64,000 bases of DNA from Xenophilus sp. Marseille-Q4582. GTDB lineage: Bacteria > Pseudomonadota > Gammaproteobacteria > Burkholderiales > Burkholderiaceae_C. Positions within the stretch are counted from its first letter, which is position 1, and each line of letters starts with the position of its first letter. Under the pieces are notes generated by a model. The model saw nothing but the letters and a program-made list of their open reading frames with translations, was not told the origin of the DNA and did no database searches. Position numbers and translations under genes: made by a program. The stretch covers positions 310,001 to 374,000 of the forward strand of contig NZ_CAKAKO010000002.1 of the NCBI RefSeq assembly GCF_916700565.1, written 5' to 3'. Positions 9,541-20,528 of this stretch are shown piece by piece.

Positions 9541-10338
9541 ATGAAGACTTGGCCGCTCCATGCGGCGCCCGATGCCGCTCCCCGCCTGCTCGGCGGCCTG
9601 ATCGACGAGATCGGCCAGCCCGGCTTCGGCACTGCTGCGCTGGAAGGCGTGCAGGCCGTGCTGCCCGCCGCGTCCTGGTCGGTGTACCGGCTGGGCACCG
9701 ATCCGGCCTTGCTGCTGTCCGCGAGCTGCGGCGTGCCCGACACCACGCGCGACTGCTGGCGCGCCTACTTGAGCGGCCCGCACCGTGCCGACCGCAGCTT
9801 CGGCCCGATGACGCTGCTGTCGGCCCGCACGCCGCACCTGTGCCACCTGGACGCGCAGGAAGCGCCGGCCGAGCATCGTGCCAAGGTCTACGACGCACAT
9901 GGCATCACGGAGCGGCTGTCGCTGGCCCAGGCGGCCGAAGGCGGCATGTTGGCCATCAACTTCTACCGACACGCCCACCAGCCCGCTTTCGGGCCGACGG
10001 CGCTGGAGCGGCTGGGCGCGCTGGCGCCGGCGCTGCTGGCCATCGTGCGCAAGCATGTGGCGCTGAGCCTTCCGGCGGCCTTGCCGTCCGCCGACCTGCA
10101 GGCGGTGGCTGCCGTGCCGACCGATCTGGAGGCGCGGCTGCTGCGCCTGTGCCCCACGCTCACGGCGCGCGAGCAGGCGGTGTGCGTGCGCCTGCTGCGC
10201 GGCCTGACGCTGGAAGGCATCGCGGCCGACCTGGAACTGGCCTTGCCCACGGTCAAGACCTACCGTCAGCGCGCTTTCGCGCGGCTGGGCATCCACTTTC
10301 GCGACGAGTTGTTCGCACGAGTGCTGCAGGCGAGCTGA
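9541..10338 (+). CDS. LuxR-type transcriptional regulator
   Basis: The C-terminal 65 residues form a LuxR helix-turn-helix (LTAREQAVCVRLLRGLTLEGIA, then LALPTVKTYRQRAFARLG). The N-terminal 190 residues contain no recognisable receiver or autoinducer domain and may be a GAF-like ligand sensor. It is transcribed away from the DUF3237-Bug-monooxygenase genes, the usual arrangement for a local regulator. The start is uncertain: ATGs at 9466, 9502 and 9541 are in frame and none has a strong ribosome-binding site. I use 9541 because it leaves room for a divergent promoter. Confidence 0.8.
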   Translation: MKTWPLHAAPDAAPRLLGGLIDEIGQPGFGTAALEGVQAVLPAASWSVYRLGTDPALLLSASCGVPDTTRDCWRAYLSGPHRADRSFGPMTLLSARTPHLCHLDAQEAPAEHRAKVYDAHGITERLSLAQAAEGGMLAINFYRHAHQPAFGPTALERLGALAPALLAIVRKHVALSLPAALPSADLQAVAAVPTDLEARLLRLCPTLTAREQAVCVRLLRGLTLEGIAADLELALPTVKTYRQRAFARLGIHFRDELFARVLQAS

Positions 10339-10500
10339 TCGGGCTGCGCCTCGTGGGGGTCAGAAAAGTCCATCTGGTGCTGTTCGTGCCACCCAGGAGA
10401 ACTGAACCGGCGCCGCCGCTGCGGCGCCACAACAGTGACATTCCCGAATTACGCAGAGCCGACCATGATGTAACATGGCGTATCAATTGTGGAGGTTGGA

Positions 10501-11133
10501 ATGATTCGTTTGGGACTGGCCGTCGTCGCAGCAGCAACGGTGGTGCATGCGCACGGCCAAAGCATCTCCGGAATCGCTACAGTGCCGGATGCTGAACTCG
10601 CTCGCTGCGCATCATTTGGGACTGATGCCCTGCGCCTGAACTGCTTTGATCAAGCCACTAAGAAACTAAAGCCGGCGAGTGCACCTAAAGCACAAGTGGC
10701 CGTTGCGGGGCAAAAAGGAAAATGGTCAACGTCAAGCGACAAAGACCCATTAACCGACAAGCCGATTTTTTACGCAATGCTTGACGCTGACGAAGGTAAA
10801 GGAAAATATGGTGGCCCCGTCTCATTGATCGTGCGATGCAAGAACAATAGTACTGAGGCTTATGTAAACTGGAATTCTTTCTTGGGTTCTGATGGAATTG
10901 CCGTCACCTATAGGGTTGATAAGGACGCCGCCGTAAAGGTGAAGTGGTCAATCTCGACAGACCACAAAGCATCGTTCATCAGGAATCCCATCCCACTCCT
11001 CAAGCAAATTGGGGACAGTTCGTCATTCGTTGTTAGCCTGACTCCTTACAGCGAGAGCCCAGTCACAGCAATATTCAACACCTCTGGCGGGGTCGCGGCA
11101 CTCGCCGACATTCGCTCGGCATGTCAATGGTGA
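10501..11133 (+). CDS. TagO/VasI-like type VI secretion-associated protein, orphan
   Basis: 210 residues with a signal peptide (MIRLGLAVVAAATVVHAHGQ). The mature pattern matches the VasI/TagO family: CASFGTDALRLNCFDQ near the N-terminus, then KWSTSSDKDPLTD, LIVRCKNNSTEAYVNW, STDHKASF, LTPYSESPVTAIF and the terminal ACQW. In type VI loci this protein is periplasmic and accessory. No other type VI gene is in the window, and the base composition is distinctly AT-richer than its neighbours, so it looks like a stray acquired gene. A strong GGAGG site fixes the start at 10501. Confidence 0.75.
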   Translation: MIRLGLAVVAAATVVHAHGQSISGIATVPDAELARCASFGTDALRLNCFDQATKKLKPASAPKAQVAVAGQKGKWSTSSDKDPLTDKPIFYAMLDADEGKGKYGGPVSLIVRCKNNSTEAYVNWNSFLGSDGIAVTYRVDKDAAVKVKWSISTDHKASFIRNPIPLLKQIGDSSSFVVSLTPYSESPVTAIFNTSGGVAALADIRSACQW

Positions 11134-11290
11134 GGTAGGCAAGAGAATAAGTCCAGATAAAATATATGGGTGTTGCACTCGGGATTAAATGCGCCCTACC
11201 GAAGTGCATACGAGCGCCGTGCAAATGCGGGTGGAATTTTGTGTTATCAACGGGAATTGGAGCGAGAGCTAAATTGGTTGGAGGATAGCC

Positions 11291-11710
11291 ATGACTGAAA
11301 TAAGAAGGAATTGTGTAATGCGTACCCCTCTCTTCTGGGTTTTAGCTCTTACCTTACTCGGTACTGCCGGATGCACAAAATCCCCTGCTGAGCAGTGCCT
11401 TGAGTCCTTTAGGAAGGACCTAGTTTCCCCAAACTCTGGGAAAGTTTTCGACTACAGCGACGGAAAATTGACCTATTTGGCAAAGAACAGAAGCGGCGTA
11501 GAGATTCAAGGTAGAGCTATCTGCACCGAAATCGATAAAAAATGGATGCGAGACACGGCGCGCGAGCATATTGAAGTTCTTAACTTAGCAGGAAAGAGCC
11601 TTGAAGCCAACAACAACTGTAGAAAAAGTGGAGAGCCAAAATCTTTGTGTGACTCACTACATAAGGTGATTTCAATTGAGGCGGCTCGTTATGAGTTGGG
11701 TTACAACTAA
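11291..11710 (+). CDS. Small lipoprotein of unknown function
   Basis: 139 residues with a lipobox LGTAGC (Cys at residue 28) after a hydrophobic segment, so it should be membrane-anchored. The mature part has four more cysteines (QCLES, AICTE, NNCRKS, SLCDS), which could form two disulphides. I do not recognise a family. The GGAGG site six bases before 11291 favours this start; an internal ATG at 11318 gives a more classic signal peptide and is the alternative. Sequence is AT-rich like the TagO-like gene upstream, suggesting joint acquisition. Confidence 0.65.
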   Translation: MTEIRRNCVMRTPLFWVLALTLLGTAGCTKSPAEQCLESFRKDLVSPNSGKVFDYSDGKLTYLAKNRSGVEIQGRAICTEIDKKWMRDTAREHIEVLNLAGKSLEANNNCRKSGEPKSLCDSLHKVISIEAARYELGYN

Positions 11711-11754
11711 ATCAGAAATAGAACGCGTCGTGGACGGGACGCAGGCCAGAGAAA

Positions 11755-13359
11755 TTAAAGCAAGCTCGCCGCCGCCAAGTGTCCGCGCGTGAAGGCTTCC
11801 TCGAAGATTGAATAGCCGGACCAATCGGCATGTGCGAAGGCCAGCCGGCCAGCATGTAGGACGCCCACTCGCGGCAGCTGCTGGCGCAGGCCGGGCGTCG
11901 GAATGGCCATGGCATGGCCGTAGCGCATGATGTCGATGCGCGTGATCTGCTGCGCCAGGTCAGGGTGTGGCACGCCAAGTTCGCCCAGCATCTGGTCGCG
12001 CCAGTGGGTCCATGGGGCGTCCAGCAGCTGCTGCCGGCCTTCGCGTGCGCTGGCGCCGTCCCAGCGGCTGGGGCCCAGCGGGCGGTACCAGCTCAGCACG
12101 GTGGCCTGCGGCGTCGGGTCCAGCCGCTGGTGGCCGGCATCCACATAGCCCAGGCCCTGGGTGCCGAAGACCACGTTGTCCCAGCTGGGCGCGGCGCCGG
12201 GCCGGTCCTTCAAGGGCGCGCGCAGGTGGGCGTTGGCCACCAGCCAGGGCGCGTACGGCAGCTGGCGCGCGGCGGTTGCCAGCCAGCCGGGCGCGCCTTC
12301 GACCACGCGCGCGGCGACGAAGGCCGGCAGCGCGACGATGCAGCGCTCGGCCTGCCAGCGCACGGTCTGCTGCGTGCGCGCGTCCCAGGCGTCGACTTCC
12401 ACGCCATGCCGCCCGTCGGCGATCCGCGTGACGGCATGGCCGCTGCGCAGCCGCTCGCCCAGCGGCGCCGCCAGTTTCGCGCTGAGCCAGCCGTTGCCCT
12501 CGGGCCAGGTGAAGACGGCTTCGCGCTCGCCGTCGTCGTCCTCCGCCTCGCCCGGCGCATGGAAGCCGTGGCGGCTCGCGAAGTAGTGGATGCCGGCCCA
12601 GGCCGACACATGCTCGATGCCGGCGCCGTAGTCGTCGCGGCAGCAGTAGTCCAGGTACCAGCGCAGCTGCGGATCATGAAGGCCCTGGGCGTCGAGCCAC
12701 GTGGCGAAGGGCTGTGCATCGAGCGCGGCGAGCGTCGGTGTCCACGGCGCACGAAAGGCGGGGATGGCGAAGCGCTCCCGCTGCCGCAGCTCGGCGATTT
12801 CTTGCGCCAGCCGCCGGTACTGGGCGAGCGTGCGGTCGCCCACGCCGTGCACGGGCAGCAGGCCCTCCTGCCATTCGCCTTGAAAGTACAGCCGCTCCTG
12901 CGGGCTGTGGCACAGGTGGCGCTCGTCGAGCACCCAGCGCCCGGCCACGCGCTGGCGCAGGCCCAGTTCTTCGAGCAGGTCCTGCACCTCGTGCGCGTCG
13001 GGCCCGGGCACCGGCAGGTAATGCGCGCCCAGCGGACAGGCGATGCCGTTGACCTGGCCGCCGCGTGCGTTGCCGCCGGCAACGTCTTCGAGCTCCAGCA
13101 GCGCGAAATCCTCGATGCCCTGCAGCCGCAGCGCGCGCGCCGCCGCCAGGCCGGCCACGCCGCCCCCCGCGATCAGCACCCGGCAGCGTTCGGTGCGGGC
13201 GGGCGCTGCGCGGCGGCCCGCGCCATCGCGCCAGGCATGGCCGCGCGCCAGGTCGATGCCGGTGAAGCCGCCGTCGATGGCCGGCACATCGGCTTCGCAG
13301 CCGGCCAGGGCCAGCGCGCTGGCCGCGGCCGTGGCGCCGATGAAGGTCCGGCGCTTCAT
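11755..13359 (-). CDS. Tat-exported FAD-dependent amine-oxidase-like protein
   Basis: 534-residue flavoprotein. The N-terminus MKRRTFIG is a twin-arginine motif followed by an alanine-rich core and Cys21, so it is probably exported folded by Tat and may be lipidated. The FAD motif LIAGGGVAGLAAARAL is at 62-77. The C-terminal segment HAGRLAFAHADWSGYSIFEEAF is the amine-oxidase-type FAD-contact region. Substrate unknown. It is the last gene of the five-gene unit and starts 10 bases after the aminopropyltransferase stop, so translation is closely linked. The neighbour suggests oxidation of a polyamine or polyamine-modified product outside the cytoplasm. Confidence 0.82.
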   Translation of the reverse strand: MKRRTFIGATAAASALALAGCEADVPAIDGGFTGIDLARGHAWRDGAGRRAAPARTERCRVLIAGGGVAGLAAARALRLQGIEDFALLELEDVAGGNARGGQVNGIACPLGAHYLPVPGPDAHEVQDLLEELGLRQRVAGRWVLDERHLCHSPQERLYFQGEWQEGLLPVHGVGDRTLAQYRRLAQEIAELRQRERFAIPAFRAPWTPTLAALDAQPFATWLDAQGLHDPQLRWYLDYCCRDDYGAGIEHVSAWAGIHYFASRHGFHAPGEAEDDDGEREAVFTWPEGNGWLSAKLAAPLGERLRSGHAVTRIADGRHGVEVDAWDARTQQTVRWQAERCIVALPAFVAARVVEGAPGWLATAARQLPYAPWLVANAHLRAPLKDRPGAAPSWDNVVFGTQGLGYVDAGHQRLDPTPQATVLSWYRPLGPSRWDGASAREGRQQLLDAPWTHWRDQMLGELGVPHPDLAQQITRIDIMRYGHAMAIPTPGLRQQLPRVGVLHAGRLAFAHADWSGYSIFEEAFTRGHLAAASLL

Positions 13360-13369
13360 GGCCGGGCGC

Positions 13370-14932
13370 TCAATGTTTTCCCCATTCGCGCTCGTAGGTG
13401 TTGACCAGCACCTGGTTCGACAGGCGGTTCACCTGCGCGGGCAGGCGCGCCATGTCCTTCGGGAAGTCGAACAGCAGCGGCAGCGTGGCGGGCGTGAGGA
13501 AGCGCAGGCCCTCGGGCAGCTGTTCCGGCAGGCGCCAGGGCCGCCGGCTCGCGATGACGAAGCCCCACTCACCGAAGCTGGGCACATGCGCGTGGTACGG
13601 CGTGGCCGTGAGCCCCACCGACTCCACCGTCTGCACCACGGTCCAGTAGCTCTGGCGCGCGATCAGCGGCGAGGTGGTCTGGATCACCGCATAGCCGCCA
13701 GCCGACAGGCGCTTGTCCAGCAGCGCGTAGAAGGACTCGGTGTAGAGCTTGCCGATGGCGAAGTTGGTCGGGTCCGGGAAGTCCACGACGATCACGTCAT
13801 AAAACGCTTCCGTCTGCTTGAACAGCCACTGGAAGGCATCGGTGTTCACCACCTTCAGCTTGGGCGAGCGCAGCGAGCCGCCGTTGAGCGCCGCGAGCTG
13901 CGCGTCGTCGCGGAAGAGCCGCGTCATGTTCGGGTCCAGCTCCACCAGCGTGACCTGTTCGACCGAAGGGTACTTGAGCACCTCGCGCACCACCATGCCG
14001 TCGCCGCCGCCCAGCACCGCCACGCGCCTGGGTGCGCCGTGCGCGGCCATCACGGGGTGCACGAGCGCCTCGTGGTAGCGGTATTCGTCGCGCTCGGCGA
14101 ACTGCAGGTTGCCGTTCAGGTACAGCCGGTGGCCCGCGCTGCCTCGGGTGACCACGATGCGCTGATACGGGGAGGTGGCGCTGACGACGATGCGGTCCTG
14201 GTAGAACTTGTCCTCGGCCAGCGAGGTGAGGGCGTCGGCGCCCACAAAGGCGGCCAGCAATGTGCCGATGGTGATGACGCAGGCCAGCGCATGCGCGCCC
14301 ACGTGGCGCAGCTCGTGCCGGAACAGCCACAGCGCCCACACGCCCACGAAGGCGTTGAGCAGGCCGAAGAAGAGACCCGTGCGGATCATGCCCAGCTGCG
14401 GCACCATCAAGAGCGGAAAGGCCACCGACACCGCGAGCGCGCCCAGGTAGTCGAAGGTCAGCACCTGCGAGACCAGGTCCTTGAGCCCGATGTCGCGCCG
14501 CAGGATGCGCATCACCAGCGGAATCTCCAGCCCCGCCAGCATGCCCACGATCATCACCAGTCCGTACAGCAGCAGCCGGAAGGCGCCCGGCACATAGGCG
14601 TGCGCGAGAAAGAGGATGGCCGGCAGCAGCCCGCCGACCAGCGCCACCAGCAGTTCCACGCGCAGGAAATGCGCGGGCAGCTGTCGGTCGAAATAGCGCG
14701 ACAGCCACGAGCCCACGCCCATGGCGAACAGGTAGGTGCCGATGATGGTGCTGAACTGCAGCACCGAATCGCCGAGCAGGTAGGAGCTGAGCGCCGCCGC
14801 GCTCAGTTCGTAGACCAGCCCGCAGGCCGCGACCACGAAGACGCTGGTCAGCAGCACCAGCGCGGTGGGCGACACGCGCGCCCGGGCGCCGTCGTCGGGC
14901 GCCTCGGCCGTCGCAAGAACGTCAGAACTCAT
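13370..14932 (-). CDS. Membrane-fused polyamine aminopropyltransferase (SpeE-like)
   Basis: 520 residues in two parts. Residues 20-230 hold about seven membrane helices. The C-terminal half is a spermidine-synthase-like Rossmann domain, with VAVLGGGDGMVVRE at 304-317 for decarboxylated-AdoMet binding, acidic E331 (VELDP) and the active-site loop VVDFPDPTNF at 382-391. The canonical enzyme transfers an aminopropyl group to putrescine. The membrane part and the altered loop mean the acceptor may be different and membrane-associated. It is in an operon with SPFH, DUF4178, DUF350 and FAD-oxidase genes. No AdoMet decarboxylase gene is present nearby. Confidence 0.85.
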   Translation of the reverse strand: MSSDVLATAEAPDDGARARVSPTALVLLTSVFVVAACGLVYELSAAALSSYLLGDSVLQFSTIIGTYLFAMGVGSWLSRYFDRQLPAHFLRVELLVALVGGLLPAILFLAHAYVPGAFRLLLYGLVMIVGMLAGLEIPLVMRILRRDIGLKDLVSQVLTFDYLGALAVSVAFPLLMVPQLGMIRTGLFFGLLNAFVGVWALWLFRHELRHVGAHALACVITIGTLLAAFVGADALTSLAEDKFYQDRIVVSATSPYQRIVVTRGSAGHRLYLNGNLQFAERDEYRYHEALVHPVMAAHGAPRRVAVLGGGDGMVVREVLKYPSVEQVTLVELDPNMTRLFRDDAQLAALNGGSLRSPKLKVVNTDAFQWLFKQTEAFYDVIVVDFPDPTNFAIGKLYTESFYALLDKRLSAGGYAVIQTTSPLIARQSYWTVVQTVESVGLTATPYHAHVPSFGEWGFVIASRRPWRLPEQLPEGLRFLTPATLPLLFDFPKDMARLPAQVNRLSNQVLVNTYEREWGKH

Positions 14933-15091
14933 GGAGAAGGGGCGCGCTCAGGGCCCGTGGCGGTGGGTTGCGGGGACGCGCGCGGCGAAGCCTATAGTGG
15001 CCACCCGTGGAGCCGGTCGAGCCGGGCCGCCACCTGTGTCCCCGGCGGGGAAGCGGGCAGCACGGGGTGCACGAGAAACGGAAGAGGGGGG

Positions 15092-15319
15092 TCAGCCGCC
15101 GTGAATGGCCGCGGCCACGATCAGGCTGATGCCCAGGCTCATCGACGCCACCACCAGGCCCAGGGCCACGTTCTGCTTCTCGACGATCTCGCGCCACATG
15201 TCCACCGGCGTGATCTTGTCGATGATGACGAAGCAGATCCAGAACACCAGCACGCCGATGAGCGCGAACAGGATGGAGCCGAGGAAGGCGGCGGGCCGAA
15301 GCCATTCAATTCCCAGCAT
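15092..15319 (-). CDS. DUF350 family membrane protein
   Basis: 75 residues with two predicted helices (about 10-33 and 50-72) and the typical central stretch DKITPVDMWREIVEKQN, which matches the DUF350/YjfL family. A GGAGG site precedes the ATG. Function is unknown; homologues sit in operons with PspA or SPFH proteins and polyamine enzymes. It lies 36 bases after the DUF4178 gene and 159 bases before the aminopropyltransferase gene, all on the minus strand. Confidence 0.85.
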   Translation of the reverse strand: MLGIEWLRPAAFLGSILFALIGVLVFWICFVIIDKITPVDMWREIVEKQNVALGLVVASMSLGISLIVAAAIHGG

Positions 15320-15355
15320 GAGAACCTCCGGGGGTGAGTGAGAGAGAAGAAAAGG

Positions 15356-16873
15356 TCATTTGTGGCTGCCGCCGCTGCTGTAGCCGCCGTAGGAGCCGCC
15401 CGAACTGCGGTAGCCGCCGCCGCTGCCCGAGCCGCCGGAGCAGGTGCTCAGCAGCGACAGCAGCACCAGGATCACGACGACGATCACGATGATGGTGCCG
15501 ATGCTCAGCGAGGGCGCGGCCGTGAAGGGCTGCACCTCGTCGCGCTTGAACTGCGCCTTGCGCGCGTCCATGCCGAAGGCCTGCGCGACGGCGGCGCTGT
15601 CCAGCCGGTCGCCGCTGGACCAGGTCAGCTCCTGCGGCGTGCTTTCGGACGACAGCAGCGCCTTGCCGAGCGCGAAGTCGCGGTTGAAGCTCTTCTGCCC
15701 GCGCGCCACCTGCCAGTAGAACTCGCCGGCCACGTAGGTGGTCTCGGCGTTGTACGCGTAGAGCTTGTGGTAGGTCTTGCCCAGGTAGCTGGCGCTGCTG
15801 CCGTTGCCGGCCATTTGGGGCGCGCCGGTGGTGGGCGCCACCAGGCTCCAGCCGTCCGAGGCATCGACCAGGAAGCTGAAGCCCTTCTGGCGGTTGAACA
15901 GCAGGTACTCGTTCCAGCCGAACTGCTCGTCGTCGCCGGGCTCCTGCCCCACGCGGTGCTGAAAGCCCACCACCTGCCAGGTGGCGCCGTTGAACTGGCC
16001 GCGGCTGCCCAGCGGGATCAGCGGGCGCACGGGTTCGTCCTGCAGCGCGTACTTCAGTTCGGCGCCGATGCCCTGGCTGAGGTCGATGATGCTGCGGCAG
16101 TTGCCGCAGGTCACGGCCTTGCTGCTCTCCAGGTCCACATGCACGGGCGAGCCGCAGTTCGGGCAGTTGAAGTCGCGCCCGCCCTGCTCTTGCTTGTCGC
16201 TGGAGGCGCGCAGGCCCGCCAGCTGCAGGTCGGCCAGCTGCACCGAGCGGCCCAGCGAAGCCGTGGGCGGCGCGCTGCCGTAGTCCAGGCTCAGCACCAG
16301 GCCCTGGTCGTTGCGCAGCTCCACCATGCGGAAGCGCTCGCCCAGCTTGGGCAGGTGCGACAGTTCGCCCTGCGCCGACGCCAGCCACACTTCCTGGTTC
16401 GCGCTGACGGTGAAGGGCCGGCCGTCGATGGCCGTGGTCATGCCCACGCGCAGGCTGTCGGCCTCGGGCGCCGGCCGCTGGAGCGCATACGGCAGCGAGA
16501 AGACGTAGGCGCCGTTGTCCTCGCTCAGCGCGCCGATGCGGTCCTCGGCCTGTTCTCCGGTGGCGCCCGCGCCGTCGAGCTGCGCCGTCCACTCCGTCCA
16601 TCGGCCCTCGGCATAGGCGTACTGCAGCCGGCCGACCAGCGTGAAGGGCCGGCCCTGGATGCGGCCGGTGGCGAAGAGCTGCAGCGGGCTGAAGTCCTCG
16701 AACAGCTCGGCCATCTTGCCGATGCGCGCGAGCTGCTCGCCCTGGCGCACCACCGTGCTCTGGCAGTAGGCGCAGACGGCGTGCGTGGACTGGGCCGAGC
16801 GGAACTCGACCGGCGCGCCGCAGCCCGGGCAGGGCGCGCGGTAGGTGCGCTGGGCGGTGCCGGGCTCAGCCAC
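15356..16873 (-). CDS. Two zinc ribbons, double DUF4178, tail-anchored protein
   Basis: 505 residues. There are two zinc-ribbon-like motifs, CPGC 15-18/CAYC 34-37 and CPNC 237-240/CGNC 256-259, each followed by a DUF4178-like beta domain (about 60-200 and 275-440). A single hydrophobic helix spans 457-477, and the tail after it is almost only Gly, Ser and Tyr. The layout suggests a cytoplasmic protein anchored at its C-terminus, with the tail across the membrane. The start is GTG at 16873; no strong ribosome-binding site is visible. It sits between the SPFH and DUF350 genes. Biochemical role unknown. Confidence 0.83.
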   Translation of the reverse strand: MAEPGTAQRTYRAPCPGCGAPVEFRSAQSTHAVCAYCQSTVVRQGEQLARIGKMAELFEDFSPLQLFATGRIQGRPFTLVGRLQYAYAEGRWTEWTAQLDGAGATGEQAEDRIGALSEDNGAYVFSLPYALQRPAPEADSLRVGMTTAIDGRPFTVSANQEVWLASAQGELSHLPKLGERFRMVELRNDQGLVLSLDYGSAPPTASLGRSVQLADLQLAGLRASSDKQEQGGRDFNCPNCGSPVHVDLESSKAVTCGNCRSIIDLSQGIGAELKYALQDEPVRPLIPLGSRGQFNGATWQVVGFQHRVGQEPGDDEQFGWNEYLLFNRQKGFSFLVDASDGWSLVAPTTGAPQMAGNGSSASYLGKTYHKLYAYNAETTYVAGEFYWQVARGQKSFNRDFALGKALLSSESTPQELTWSSGDRLDSAAVAQAFGMDARKAQFKRDEVQPFTAAPSLSIGTIIVIVVVILVLLSLLSTCSGGSGSGGGYRSSGGSYGGYSSGGSHK

Positions 16874-16957
16874 GGGCCGCCCCGCCCGCGCGGGCGTTCA
16901 GCGTCGACGAAGCGCCGCCCTCACCGGCGCATCGTGCCATCCAGCGCATGGACCGCT

Positions 16958-18004
16958 TCAGACCAGCTTCTTGAGCAGTTCGGCCTTCTTGCTGTCGAAC
17001 TCTTCCTGCGTGAGGATGCCCTTGGCCTTGAGCTCGCCCAGCTTTTCGAGGGTGGCGATCACCTCGTCGGCGCTCACGGTGGCCGCCGGCGCCGTGGCCA
17101 CCACGGCGGCCTGCGCCGCCGCGTTGGGGTTCAGGCCCTGGGCCAGGTTCTGCGCGAGCACCTGGCCCAGCGCCACGCCGGCGCCCAGGCCCATGGCGTC
17201 GCCGGCCACCCCGCTGCCGCTGCCCGAGGCTTCGGCGAACTTGGGGATCGCCTGCGCGGTCTGGTACTGCATGAACTTGCCCATGTCGTTGCCGACCATG
17301 CCCATGCCGATCTTCTGATCGAGGATCTTCTGCAGCTCTTCGGGCAGCGAGACATTCTGGACCGTGAGGGTCTCGAGCTTGATGCCGATCTTGGCGAACT
17401 CGGGCGCCAGCTGGTTCGACAGCGCCTGCGCGAACTGGATCTGGTTGGCCGCCAGGTCCAGGAAGGGCACGCCGCTGGCGGCGATGGCGTTGCTGATGTT
17501 CTGCAGCACCAGCCCGCGCAGCTGGCCGTCGAGGTCGGCCACGCCATAGCTCTCGCGCGTGCCCGAAATCTCGGTGTGGAAGAGCTTCGGGTCGGCGATG
17601 CGGAAGGCGTAGTTGCCGAAGGCGCGCAGCCGCACCGCGCCGAAGTCCTTGTCGCGGATGGTGATGGGCTGCGGCGTGCCCCACTTCTGGTCGACCTGCT
17701 GGCGCGTGCTGAAGAAGTAGACGTCGCTCTTGAAGGGGGACTCGAAGAGCTTGTCCCAGTTCTTGAGGTAGGTGAGGACGGGCAGCGTCTGCGTCGTCAG
17801 CTTGTACATGCCCGGGCCGAAGACGTCGGCCACCTGGCCTTCGTTGACGAAGACGGCCATCTGCGATTCGCGCACGGTGAGCGAGGCGCCGTTCTGGATC
17901 TCCATCTCCTGCATCGGGAAACGCCAGGCCAGCGTGCCGTCGCCCGTCTCGGTCCACTGGATGATGTCGATGAACTGCTTCTTGATGAAATCCATCAGGG
18001 CCAT
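16958..18004 (-). CDS. SPFH-domain protein with C-terminal SHOCT motif
   Basis: 348 residues. Residues 1-260 form an SPFH/Band-7 domain of the virion-core-like type (FIKKQFIDIIQWTE, ESQMAVFVNEGQVADVFGPG, SGVPFLDLAANQ). A Gly/Ala-rich stretch follows, and the last 30 residues match a SHOCT oligomerisation motif (KLGELKAKGILTQEEFDSKK). There is no transmembrane helix, so it would act as a peripheral membrane scaffold. The GAGGAG site supports MALMDF as the start. It is the first gene of the five-gene unit and is divergent from maeB across about 180 bases that must hold both promoters. Confidence 0.88.
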   Translation of the reverse strand: MALMDFIKKQFIDIIQWTETGDGTLAWRFPMQEMEIQNGASLTVRESQMAVFVNEGQVADVFGPGMYKLTTQTLPVLTYLKNWDKLFESPFKSDVYFFSTRQQVDQKWGTPQPITIRDKDFGAVRLRAFGNYAFRIADPKLFHTEISGTRESYGVADLDGQLRGLVLQNISNAIAASGVPFLDLAANQIQFAQALSNQLAPEFAKIGIKLETLTVQNVSLPEELQKILDQKIGMGMVGNDMGKFMQYQTAQAIPKFAEASGSGSGVAGDAMGLGAGVALGQVLAQNLAQGLNPNAAAQAAVVATAPAATVSADEVIATLEKLGELKAKGILTQEEFDSKKAELLKKLV

Positions 18005-18182
18005 GCGGTTCTCCTCGGTCGGGATGAAGTTGGGGGCGGATGTTGCCACAAGGGCATGGCCGATTGCCGGTTGTGCATGGCCGATATGCCAAAGGGCAGG
18101 CCTCGGTCAAGGGCGCCCTCCTACAATCAGCGCCCCTCAGAACAAGCGAGCGTCGCCTTCGCGACGCCAGGAGCCAGCCCTG

Positions 18183-20528
18183 ATGTCCGAATCCACCGCC
18201 ACGACGCCTCAAGCCTCGCCCGAAGACAAACGCGCCCTGCTGCGCCGTGCCGCGCTCGACTACCACGCCCTGCCCACCCCGGGGAAGGTGGCGATTTCGG
18301 CGACCAAGCAGATGGTGAACCAGCGCGACCTGTCCCTGGCCTACTCCCCCGGCGTGGCGGCGCCCTGCGAGGAAATCGTCAAGGACCCGGCCAACGCCTT
18401 CAAGTACACCTCGCGCGGCAACCTGGTGGCGGTGATCAGCAACGGCACCGCCGTGCTGGGCCTGGGCGACATCGGGCCGCTGGCTTCCAAGCCGGTGATG
18501 GAAGGCAAGGGCGTGCTGTTCAAGAAGTTCGCCGGCGTGGACGTGTTCGACATCGAGATCGACGAGAAGGACCCTACGAGACTGGTCGAGGTGATCGCCG
18601 CGCTGGAGCCGACCTTCGGCGCCATCAACCTCGAGGACATCAAGGCGCCGGACTGCTTCTACGTCGAGCGCGAGCTGCGCAAGCGCATGAAGATCCCGGT
18701 CTTCCACGACGACCAGCACGGCACGGCCATCACGGTGGCGGCCGCCATGCTCAACGGCCTGAAGGTGGCGGGCAAGAAGATCGAGGACGTGACGCTGGTC
18801 GCCTCGGGCGCGGGCGCGGCGGCGCTGGCCTGCCTGAACCTGCTGCTCAAGGTGGGCCTCAAGCGCGAGAACGTGTTCGTCACCGACCTGGCTGGCGTGG
18901 TCTACGAGGGCCGCACCGAGCTCATGGACGAGGACAAGGCGCTGTTCGCGCGCAAGACCGACGCGCGCACGCTGGGCGAGGTGATCGAGGGCGCGGACGT
19001 GTTCCTGGGCCTGTCGGCCGCCAACGTGCTCAAGCCCGAGATGGTGGCGAAGATGGCGCCGCGCCCGGTGATCTTCGCGCTGGCCAACCCGAACCCGGAA
19101 ATCCTGCCCGAAGTGGCGCATGGCGTGCGCGACGACGTCATCATGGCCACGGGCCGCACGGACTACCCGAACCAGGTCAACAACGTCCTGTGCTTCCCGT
19201 ACATCTTCCGCGGCGCGCTGGACTGCGGCGCCACCACCATCACGGACGAGATGGAAATCGCCGCCGTGCACGCCATCGCCGAACTGGCGCAGGCCGAGCA
19301 GAGCGAGCGCGTGGCCGCGGCCTACGTGGGCGAGAAGCTGAGCTTCGGGCCGGAGTACCTCATTCCCAAGCCCTTCGATCCGCGGCTGATGATGAAGATC
19401 GCGCCCGCGGTCGCCAAGGCGGCCGAGGAAAGCGGCGTGGCCGCGCGCCCGATCCAGGACCTGGACGCCTACCGCGACAAGCTGCAGACCTTCGTCTATG
19501 CCTCCGGCACGACGATGAAGCCCATCTTCGACGCCGCCAAGCGCGCCGCAAAGAAGCGCGTGGCCTATGCCGAGGGCGAGGAAGAGCGCGTGCTGCGCGC
19601 CTGCCAGATCGTGGTCGACGAAGGCATCGCGCGCCCCACGCTGATCGGCCGCCCGGCCATCATCGCCCAGCGCATCCAGAAGTTCGGCCTGCGCCTGCGC
19701 GAGGAGCTGGACTACGACGTGGTCAACACCGACTTCGACCACCGTTACCGCGACTTCTGGCAGACCTACCACCGCATGACCGAACGCAAGGGCATCACCG
19801 CCCAGGTCGCCAAGATCGAGATGCGCCGCCGCCTGACGCTGATCGGTTCCATGATGCTGCACAAGGGCGAGGTGGATGGCCTGATCTGCGGCACCTGGGG
19901 CACCACGCTGCAGCACCTGAACCACATCGACCAGGTCATCGGCAAGCGTGCGGGCGGCTGCGCCAGCACGCCGCAGGACGTGCCTGTCTACGCCTGCATG
20001 AACGGCCTGATGCTGCCCGAGCGCCAGGTCTTCCTGGTCGACACGCACGTCAACTACGACCCGAGCGCCGAGGAGCTGGCCGAGATCACGACCATGGCGG
20101 CCGAGGAAATGATGCGCTTCGGCCTCAAGCCCAAGGCCGCGCTGCTGAGCCATTCCAACTTCGGCACCAGCAACCACCCGAGCGCCGTGAAGATGCGCCA
20201 GACGCTGGAGCTGCTGCGCGTACAGGCACCCTGGCTGGAAGTGGATGGCGAAATGCACGGCGACGTGGCCCTGGACGGCAAGCAGCGCACGGCCATCATG
20301 CCGCACAGCGCGCTGGCCGGCGACGCCAACCTGCTGGTGTTCCCGAACATCGATTCGGCCAACATCGCCTACAACCTGCTCAAGACGGCCGCGGGCGGCA
20401 ACATCGCCATCGGCCCGGTGCTGCTCGGCGCGGCCAAACCTGTGCACATTCTCACGGCCAGCGCCACGGTGCGCCGCATCGTGAACATGACGGCGCTGAC
20501 GGTGGCGGACGCGAACGCCGACCGCTGA
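18183..20528 (+). CDS. maeB: NADP-dependent malic enzyme with phosphotransacetylase-like domain
   Basis: 781 residues, the long MaeB form. Residues 1-430 are the malic enzyme part ([12 protein letters not shown], the catalytic [10 protein letters not shown] segment, nucleotide motif [12 protein letters not shown]). Residues about 450-781 are a phosphate acetyl/butyryltransferase-like domain thought to be regulatory (acetyl-CoA sensing) in E. coli MaeB. It converts malate and NADP+ to pyruvate, CO2 and NADPH. An AGGAG site precedes the ATG. It is followed by two perfect palindromes before the RNase gene. Confidence 0.96.

What the first reader, a model, noticed from the sequence alone, without database searches (positions are those of the whole stretch)
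11755..18004. Five-gene unit: SPFH-SHOCT, zinc-ribbon/DUF4178, DUF350, membrane aminopropyltransferase, Tat-FAD oxidase
Five minus-strand genes with short gaps (84, 36, 159 and 10 bases) combine a membrane scaffold, a tail-anchored protein with two zinc ribbons, a small DUF350 membrane protein, a spermidine-synthase domain fused to about seven helices, and an exported flavin oxidase. SPFH and DUF350 proteins are known from membrane-stress contexts, and polyamine enzymes recur with them. Inference: a membrane-sited system that makes an aminopropylated compound or lipid and oxidises a product outside the cytoplasm, possibly an envelope-stress or defence response. The acceptor substrate and AdoMet decarboxylase source are unknown.
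Basis: partly seen in the sequence, partly recalled or inferred. Interest (0 to 1): 0.8.

Follow-up and report, generated by a model that had tools for sequence, protein, structure and literature searches.

The report
Conserved membrane aminopropyl-transfer gene unit
Five neighbouring bacterial genes form a real, widely kept unit that pairs a membrane scaffold with a spermidine-synthase-like enzyme, probably facing outwards, and an exported flavin enzyme; the gene set has been described once in print, but what it makes is still unknown.

Summary
In detail: five minus-strand genes, coordinates and gaps exact. The unit is conserved. In 200 genomes of the order, DUF4178 and the membrane SpeE occur in the same 32; the oxidase and AdoMet decarboxylase (SpeD) are each in 31 of these. 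SpeD is kept in 27 of 27 genomes whose only strong SpeE is the membrane one, against 2 of 132 with neither SpeE, so the donor is most likely dcAdoMet. The window's genome has one unlinked SpeD and no other SpeE. Relatives break the unit mainly at the 159-base gap, giving two modules: SPFH/zinc-ribbon-DUF4178/DUF350 and SpeE/oxidase. The SpeE keeps the donor site and catalytic aspartates, but its acceptor side differs from soluble SpeE at nearly invariant positions. Loop charges across 115 homologues put its catalytic domain outside the cytoplasm, where its partner, a Tat-signal lipoprotein that seems to lack the amine-oxidase lysine, also lies. A fungal 7TM enzyme of like architecture acts on secreted proteins. 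The gene set is described briefly by Ravi et al. 2024, so this is a new member of a known kind; the outward-facing aminopropyltransferase is the novel, untested reading. A defence role found no support.

The parts
16958..18004 (-). SPFH/Band_7_1 protein with C-terminal SHOCT (residues 318-344), 348 aa; looks peripheral, no clear TM helix
   Evidence: in the locus in 23 of 32 order genomes (read), a Band_7_1 gene elsewhere in the other 9 of 32
15356..16873 (-). Protein with two zinc ribbons and two DUF4178 stretches, one TM helix (about residues 458-476) and a Gly/Ser/aromatic C-terminal tail ending HK (about 15359-15406)
15092..15319 (-). Short DUF350 protein, 75 aa, two helices (half the size of the 128-164 aa form of divergent-type loci)
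14933..15091 (.). 159-base spacer: the module boundary, where relatives carry inserts or switch strand
   Evidence: opposite strands in 15 of 99 loci; more than 1 kb between DUF350 and SpeE in 15 of 84 same-strand loci (in one, L178, because SPFH and DUF4178 lie between)
14228..14932 (-). Membrane domain of SpeE (residues 1-235), about seven helices, polar residues Y41 E42 E136 R142 D161 Y162 N193 invariant in A1
13370..14227 (-). Catalytic spermidine-synthase-like domain of SpeE (residues 236-520); GGGDG 308-312, D365, D384 and D387 kept; predicted extracytoplasmic by loop charge
13297..13359 (-). Tat-type signal peptide with lipobox (LALAGC) of the oxidase
11755..13359 (-). FAD-dependent amine-oxidase-superfamily lipoprotein, 534 aa

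Best explanation
A two-module envelope system. Module 1 (SPFH-SHOCT, zinc-ribbon/DUF4178, DUF350) is a membrane-attached scaffold that works like the B. subtilis YdjG-YdjI partners of PspA. Module 2 is a membrane aminopropyltransferase plus an exported flavoenzyme. SpeD, encoded elsewhere in this genome, makes dcAdoMet in the cytosol. The seven-helix SpeE transfers its aminopropyl group to an amine that is not putrescine. By loop charge its catalytic domain lies on the periplasmic face, so the acceptor would be an extracytoplasmic amine (exported protein, lipid head group or other envelope amine). The Tat-signal lipoprotein flavoenzyme then oxidises the product, or a compound derived from it, in the same compartment. 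Shown by computation: gene content, co-occurrence, SpeD retention, kept donor site, changed acceptor side, export signal. Inferred: outward topology, passage of dcAdoMet through the membrane domain, the acceptor's nature, the oxidase's substrate, and the stress role.
For: The same 32 of 200 order genomes carry DUF4178 and the membrane SpeE. Oxidase family in 31 of those 32, in G336 (a congener of the one without it, 86% complete), and as one weak partial hit in G171. SpeD in 31 of 32; in 27 of 27 with membrane SpeE and no soluble SpeE match of 130 bits or more, against 2 of 132 with neither. Own genome: one SpeD, one Spermine_synth gene. Donor and catalytic residues are shared by 115 of 115 membrane SpeE (114 distinct) and at least 18 of 20 soluble SpeE, while N273, N350, Q418, G440 and F453 (each in 113-115 of 115) replace residues kept in 18-20 of 20 soluble ones, and H447, W430, K395 and a C-terminal segment are specific. 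K+R means: loops 2-3, 4-5, 6-7 = 2.80, 3.90, 2.69; loops 1-2, 3-4, 5-6 = 0.01, 0.01, 0.19; 99 of 115 proteins (5 ties; 98 of 114 distinct) favour N-in, hence catalytic domain outside; five further class-level homologues show the same pattern. Lipobox-position Cys in 31 of 31 oxidase rows that include the N-terminus. Precedent: fungal NHMT, 7TM plus spermidine-synthase-like domain, ER-located, modifies secreted proteins (PMC10349129, abstract and passages). YdjI is needed to bring PspA to the membrane (PMC8581546, passages).
Against: dcAdoMet is made in the cytosol and no route to the periplasm is known to me. Of the double-length homologues, a simple count gave 13 helices in two (L226, L228) and 12 in four (L224, L225, L229, L230); that these four also have an odd number is my inference from long loops. 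11 of 115 proteins favour the opposite side by charge. Cysteine depletion of the catalytic domain is not clean evidence: the SPFH family is as Cys-poor and the exported oxidase is not. The acceptor and the oxidase substrate are unidentified. In the wider class, membrane SpeE also occurs beside PspA with no oxidase found in the stretches taken.
Confidence: 0.4

Rival explanations
1. The membrane SpeE is simply the cell's spermidine (or related polyamine) synthase, held at the membrane; the product is exported and the lipoprotein is a polyamine oxidase that limits it.
For: It is the only strong SpeE in 27 of 32 genomes and SpeD is kept for it; the catalytic residues are intact; the oxidase profile's best solved match is a putrescine oxidase, 48 bits; the 2024 paper speaks of a polyamine oxidase.
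Against: Acceptor-side residues kept in 18-20 of 20 soluble SpeE are replaced by other residues in 113-115 of 115 membrane SpeE. It coexists with a soluble SpeE in 5 of 32 genomes. The oxidase has no conserved Lys where MAO/PAO enzymes have theirs (that position is recalled). Li et al. 2019, cited in PMC11237479 but not held, reported as I recall that such fusions do not replace SpdSyn.
Confidence: 0.25
2. The catalytic domain faces the cytosol and aminopropylates an inner-leaflet lipid or membrane protein; the product is flipped and the oxidase works on it outside.
For: dcAdoMet is cytosolic (own knowledge); the membrane domain has invariant charged residues; the PspA/YdjI partners act at the membrane from the cytosolic side.
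Against: Loop charge and the helix count argue for an outside catalytic domain; it needs an extra transport step.
Confidence: 0.2
3. The SpeE-like domain is a methyltransferase using AdoMet, like fungal NHMT.
For: Like NHMT, which methylates, it has seven helices followed by a SpdS-like domain.
Against: GGGDG is kept in 115 of 115, the acidic residue whose loss marks NHMT; SpeD is retained with it in 27 of 27.
Confidence: 0.07
4. The unit is an anti-phage defence system.
For: Restriction-modification genes sit inside the unit in 3 relatives.
Against: PADLOC: the one strong match, mad2 on the SpeE domain (62 bits), is matched as well by 3 of 3 soluble SpeE; the two other hits are weak, 15 and 14 bits. 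Mobility of the unit was not tested.
Confidence: 0.04

Closest known systems
Band-7/SHOCT polyamine operon variant of Ravi et al. 2024 (PMC11237479; section 19 read)
   Same: Band-7+SHOCT protein in place of the PspA/CesT-Tir dyad, with AdoMet decarboxylase and polyamine oxidase; the same section describes 7TM-SpeE with DUF350 and DUF4178.
   Different: The section gives no counts, active-site or topology analysis. Here there is no ATP-grasp ligase of the GSP_synth family in the genome, SpeD is unlinked, and the 2TM part of the band-7 protein is not evident.
PspA/CesT-Tir/7TM-SpeE/DUF350/DUF4178 operons (AAN56744.1 type, same section)
   Same: 7TM-SpeE, DUF350, DUF4178-like protein; seen here in G052 (Pfam: DUF2170, PspA; DUF4178 and RHH below cut-off) and, mostly by likeness, in G075, G077, G139 and, without a DUF350 call, G056.
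   Different: PspA and DUF2170-type genes instead of SPFH and oxidase; DUF350 of about 300 aa.
Fungal NHMT AN4663 (PMC10349129, abstract and passages)
   Same: Seven helices followed by a spermidine-synthase-like domain; acts on secreted proteins.
   Different: Lacks the acidic residue of GxG(D/E)G and methylates; the bacterial family keeps GGGDG and co-occurs with SpeD. Homology of the two 7TM parts was not tested.
B. subtilis PspA-YdjGHI (PMC8581546, passages)
   Same: An SPFH protein and membrane partners encoded together; per PMC11237479, YdjG also has two zinc ribbons and a TM segment.
   Different: No SpeE or oxidase is described there; PspA is not in the window's unit (own PspA on another contig).

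Membership tests
Ravi 2024 band-7/SHOCT polyamine operon variant | Band-7 protein with SHOCT in place of PspA/CesT-Tir | tested here: met
   PspA is elsewhere in the genome
Ravi 2024 band-7/SHOCT polyamine operon variant | Two TM segments between band-7 and SHOCT | tested here: inconclusive
   two weak segments, maximum 1.36; 0 of 79 homologues reach 1.6
Ravi 2024 band-7/SHOCT polyamine operon variant | AdoMet decarboxylase and polyamine oxidase in the operon | tested here: inconclusive
   oxidase adjacent in 28 of 32; SpeD in the genome in 31 of 32 but within the fetched locus in 18 of 32, and unlinked in the window's genome
Ravi 2024 band-7/SHOCT polyamine operon variant | ATP-grasp glutathionylspermidine-synthetase relative (third group; whether required in this variant is unclear from the text) | tested here: not met
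   PF03738: 0 matches in the own genome; rings in E. coli and Caulobacter controls
Spermidine synthase (aminopropyltransferase) | GxG(D/E)G donor motif and catalytic Asp pair | tested here: met
   115 of 115
Spermidine synthase (aminopropyltransferase) | Makes spermidine from putrescine | not testable with these tools
   acceptor-side residues differ
Polyamine oxidase / MAO family | FAD-binding amine-oxidase family by profile | tested here: met
   PF01593 74 bits; best PDB profile match 2yg6, 48 bits
Polyamine oxidase / MAO family | Lys near the flavin N5 (position recalled) | tested here: not met
   no column with Lys in more than 39% of 36 rows; the likely position is V/A/N; the alignment there is weak
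PspA-Ydj type system | PspA in the unit | tested here: not met
   own PspA is on another contig; no PspA among the unit's five genes
Known defence systems (PADLOC 2.0.0) | Specific model match | tested here: not met
NHMT (fungal 7TM methyltransferase) | Loss of the acidic residue in GxG(D/E)G | tested here: not met
   GGGDG kept in 115 of 115

The most novel reading that the evidence does not exclude
The SpeE of this unit is an extracytoplasmic aminopropyltransferase: its seven-helix domain lets dcAdoMet through to a catalytic domain on the periplasmic face, which adds aminopropyl groups to an exported protein or outer-leaflet component, and a dedicated lipoprotein flavoenzyme oxidises the adduct there. 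This would be a bacterial counterpart, with aminopropyl instead of methyl, of the fungal 7TM enzyme NHMT.
Probability: 0.33. Interest if true: 0.88.

Novelty: new member of a known kind. Interest (0 to 1): 0.62.

Why it matters
The gene set is known in print, as far as my searches show, only from comparative genomics, and its chemistry is open. The data here turn that question into a few direct tests. The donor is settled with fair confidence, because in the sampled order SpeD is almost confined to genomes with a SpeE that needs it. The acceptor is probably not putrescine. The transferase and its oxidase may share the periplasm. If the outward topology is right, polyamine-type chemistry with dcAdoMet takes place outside the cytoplasm, which as far as I know has not been described (own knowledge; the listing, 25 of 52 papers shown, has nothing of the kind). 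It would also suggest that many genes annotated 'polyamine aminopropyltransferase' under NF002956 are misnamed and should not be used to infer spermidine synthesis.

Tried and rejected
Defence reading: PADLOC gave one strong match, mad2 on the SpeE domain (62 bits), and three soluble SpeE gave 57-92 bits to the same model, so it is not specific; weak hits were Cas10a 15 bits on P0002 and a desaturase model 14 bits on P0005.

Oxidase crosslinking the DUF4178 tail: the tail ending ..GG.HK (65 of 102 loci) is kept also where the oxidase was not called, and absent in lineages that have the oxidase, so the idea was dropped. The oxidase calls were later shown to be incomplete, which weakens this test.

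Cysteine depletion as proof of export: dropped after the control.

The first neighbourhood annotation missed oxidases and DUF350 genes whose first-start ORF overlapped SpeE; it was replaced by the six-frame domain annotation, and counts are from there. A permissive twin-arginine pattern gave 97 of 97 and also fits the FAD motif, so it is not used. In one search the twin-arginine count (31 of 31) is biased, because most rows from L106-L185 had been trimmed at a twin arginine by script; the cysteine count is not.

Structure prediction was tried once and is switched off. Promoter scan: 0 sigma-70-like sites, uninformative. The first family search used a wrong accession that I recalled, PF14023.
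Full report
Observation. Families by Pfam and NCBIfam are as named. The host is a Burkholderiales close to Xenophilus: the nearest named SpeE is from Xenophilus arseniciresistens, 95% identical.

Conservation across genomes. In 200 genomes drawn from the order, DUF4178 occurs in 32 and the membrane SpeE (NF002956 over its cut-off) in 32, and these are the same 32. The oxidase profile A3 (P0005 plus 35 of the 76 oxidases listed, 9 of them from these order genomes) finds 33 of 200 genomes: 31 of those 32, G336 (704 bits; 86% complete, same genus as G300, the one without it) and G171 (76 bits, partial). From, the oxidase is directly after SpeE in 28 of 32, elsewhere in the genome in 3 (G174, G218, and G252 about 18 kb away), and not found in 1 (G300, about 680 contigs). 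DUF350 is in the fetched loci of 31 of 32 and SPFH in 23 of 32 (read); in the other 9 genomes a Band_7_1 protein is encoded elsewhere, 9 of 9. Of the 57 with at least 6 kb upstream and 5 kb downstream: 54, 54, 50, 54 and 23, with all five unit genes in the fetched stretch in 48. One named locus, L173, has the same SpeE as G300. In a class sample the link is looser: membrane SpeE in 9 of 143, DUF4178 in 4 of 143, one of them below cut-off, all four among the nine. Of the five others, G052, G075 and G077 show a PspA-like/DUF350/DUF4178-like arrangement by likeness (Pfam-tested for G052, where DUF4178 is below cut-off), G056 the same without a DUF350 call, and G001 none of these in the stretch taken.

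Two modules. Two layouts exist: colinear SPFH>DUF4178>DUF350>SpeE>oxidase, with DUF350 of 70-77 aa mostly, and divergent (SpeD)<DUF4178<SPFH<DUF350 | SpeE>oxidase, with DUF350 of 128-164 aa. The main break lies between DUF350 and SpeE: 15 of 99 pairs are on opposite strands, and 15 of 84 same-strand pairs are more than 1 kb apart (one of them, L178, because SPFH and DUF4178 lie between). The others: SpeE-oxidase more than 1 kb apart in 4 of 98; SPFH-DUF4178 in 6 of 79, with one in another order; DUF4178-DUF350 in 6 of 98, with 15 in the other order, 14 of them the divergent layout, and one on opposite strands. In the window the main break corresponds to the 159-base gap, so a second promoter there is plausible but untested (one search found no consensus site).

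Donor. The own genome has one AdoMet decarboxylase gene, unlinked, next to a gene that looks LysR-type by eye, with the usual ESH/HTWPE motifs (recalled), and one Spermine_synth gene, the one in the window. In the 200 genomes SpeD is found in 69. It is present in 27 of 27 genomes with the membrane SpeE and no soluble SpeE match of 130 bits or more, in 40 of 41 with such a soluble SpeE, and in 2 of 132 with neither. Weaker SpeE-like matches were not counted: G299, one of the 27, has one of 92 bits, and the match list is cut at about E 4e-10. The Fisher value ignores relatedness; the 32 genomes fall in 23 of 109 genera. The simplest reading is that SpeD is kept to feed the membrane enzyme. Some SpeD relatives have become ornithine or arginine decarboxylases (PMC10407285, title, abstract start and passages), so the activity should be checked.

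Acceptor. Across 115 membrane SpeE (over 450 aa, one per locus; 114 distinct) and 20 soluble SpeE (chosen by me from 41 genomes; not experimentally characterised), Q257, E283, Y286, H287, G308-G310, G312, D333, D365, D384 and D387 are shared in all rows; D311 is E in 2 soluble rows. On the acceptor side the membrane set is fixed differently: N273 (115 of 115) for D (20 of 20 soluble), N350 (114) for H (20), Q418 (115) for H (18), G440 (113) for F (20), F453 (115) for Y (18); and H447, W430, K395, E455 and a C-terminal segment 490-517 are specific. Placing these residues at the acceptor side rests on known SpdSyn structures as I recall them. This argues against putrescine as acceptor. It fits my recollection of Li et al. 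2019 (Biochem J 476:2579; cited in PMC11237479, not held) that such fusions with AdoMetDC and DUF350 neighbours do not make spermidine.

Topology. Hydropathy gives seven helices, the second weak. Mean K+R is 2.80, 3.90 and 2.69 in loops 2-3, 4-5 and 6-7, and 0.01, 0.01 and 0.19 in loops 1-2, 3-4 and 5-6; the 15 residues after helix 7 are net negative. In 99 of 115 proteins (5 ties, 11 against; 98 of 114 distinct) the charge favours loops 2-3, 4-5, 6-7 inside. With seven helices the catalytic domain is then outside. Eight class-level genes were looked at: L071, L072 and L207 are genes already in the 115 (L207 is that of L070), and the five new ones (L209, L210, L212, L213, L214) show the same pattern; the PspA-type ones with long N-termini have basic N-termini. 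Nine longer or divergent relatives: a count gives 13 helices in L226 and L228, 12 in L224, L225, L229 and L230, 18 in L227, and 7 in L231 and L232; in all nine the last loop carries 2-4 K/R. This agrees with a C-out domain but is not proof. The control on cysteine content was negative as evidence. The outward reading has a precedent: fungal AN4663/NHMT has a 7TM part and a spermidine-synthase-like domain, is in the ER, and methylates the N-terminus of secreted LPMOs; its authors note that it lacks the acidic residue needed to bind dcAdoMet (abstract and passages). Our family keeps that residue.

Oxidase. The protein is in the FAD amine-oxidase superfamily; the best profile matches in the PDB are putrescine oxidase, protoporphyrinogen oxidase and MAO-B, all at most 48 bits and mostly over the N-terminal part. 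All 31 rows of A3 that include the N-terminus (5 rows lost it in trimming) have the lipobox-position cysteine and a twin arginine; the latter count is biased by the trimming. Invariant motifs include AHYxPxP, CRD, HxM and AHxD. No column has Lys in more than 39% of the 36 rows, so the lysine of MAO/PAO enzymes (recalled) seems absent. 'Polyamine oxidase' is therefore a superfamily label, not a demonstrated substrate.

Scaffold. In B. subtilis the SPFH protein YdjI is required to bring PspA to the membrane, and deletion of ydjG or ydjH abolishes this (PMC8581546, passages). PMC11237479 (section 19) describes YdjG as having two zinc ribbons and a TM segment, like the DUF4178 protein here. This is a likeness of layout; I did not test homology.

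Prior art and verdict. PMC11237479 section 19 already lists 7TM-SpeE with DUF350 and DUF4178, and a variant in which a band-7-SHOCT protein replaces the PspA dyad, with AdoMet decarboxylase and polyamine oxidase. DUF4178 appears in one paper of the library, and DUF350 with 'spermidine synthase' in three. So the unit is a new member of a described, uncharacterised kind. What is added here: the strict co-occurrence in the order, SpeD retention, two modules, a changed acceptor side, a lipoprotein oxidase without the usual lysine, and an outward-facing catalytic domain as the boldest reading. In the passages and sections that I read I saw no statement on the orientation of the bacterial enzyme; (52 papers, 25 shown as titles and abstract starts) showed none in its listing.

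Noticed in passing
L077:6271-13460, L138:3657-9959, L168:4556-9968: Restriction-modification genes sit between DUF350 and SpeE: type I (HsdR, S, M with DUF3800) in L077, and type III-like Mod/Res with a Schlafen AlbA_2 protein in L138 or a DUF3800 protein in L168 (Mod and Res of L168 by likeness only). A possible insertion hot spot inside a conserved unit.
   Followed up: partly
window 15359-15406: C-terminal tail of the DUF4178 protein, about SSGGS[YFW]GG[YFW]SSGG[GS]HK, ends in ..GG.HK in 65 of 102 loci. Other lineages have acidic tails or two hydrophobic stretches instead.
   Followed up: partly
window 10001-12000: GC drops to 55.8% against 65-77% in the other 2-kb steps, over two plus-strand genes beside the unit: a VasI-like protein at 10489-11133 (PF11319, 33 bits) and a lipoprotein-like ORF at 11291-11710 without a Pfam match. 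Perhaps acquired separately.
   Followed up: no
window 18177-20528: Malic enzyme domains fused to a phosphotransacetylase domain, divergent from the unit.
   Followed up: no
L071:4332-6417: In G043 a TelA protein (PF05816) and a Halogen_Hydrol protein (PF10112) lie between SpeE and SPFH, another envelope-stress-like pair.
   Followed up: partly
L089:9173-11527: Divergent-type loci L089 and L091 carry small extra genes in the unit, among them a GFA-like zinc protein and a bactofilin-like repeat protein (by eye).
   Followed up: no
L137: Contig labelled Akkermansia muciniphila MAG encodes a copy of the unit 73% identical in SpeE to the window's; probably mis-binned.
   Followed up: no
PADLOC model PDLC04134 (mad2): This defence model matches three of three soluble SpeE with 57-92 bits, so it may cause false calls of a MADS component.
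   Followed up: yes
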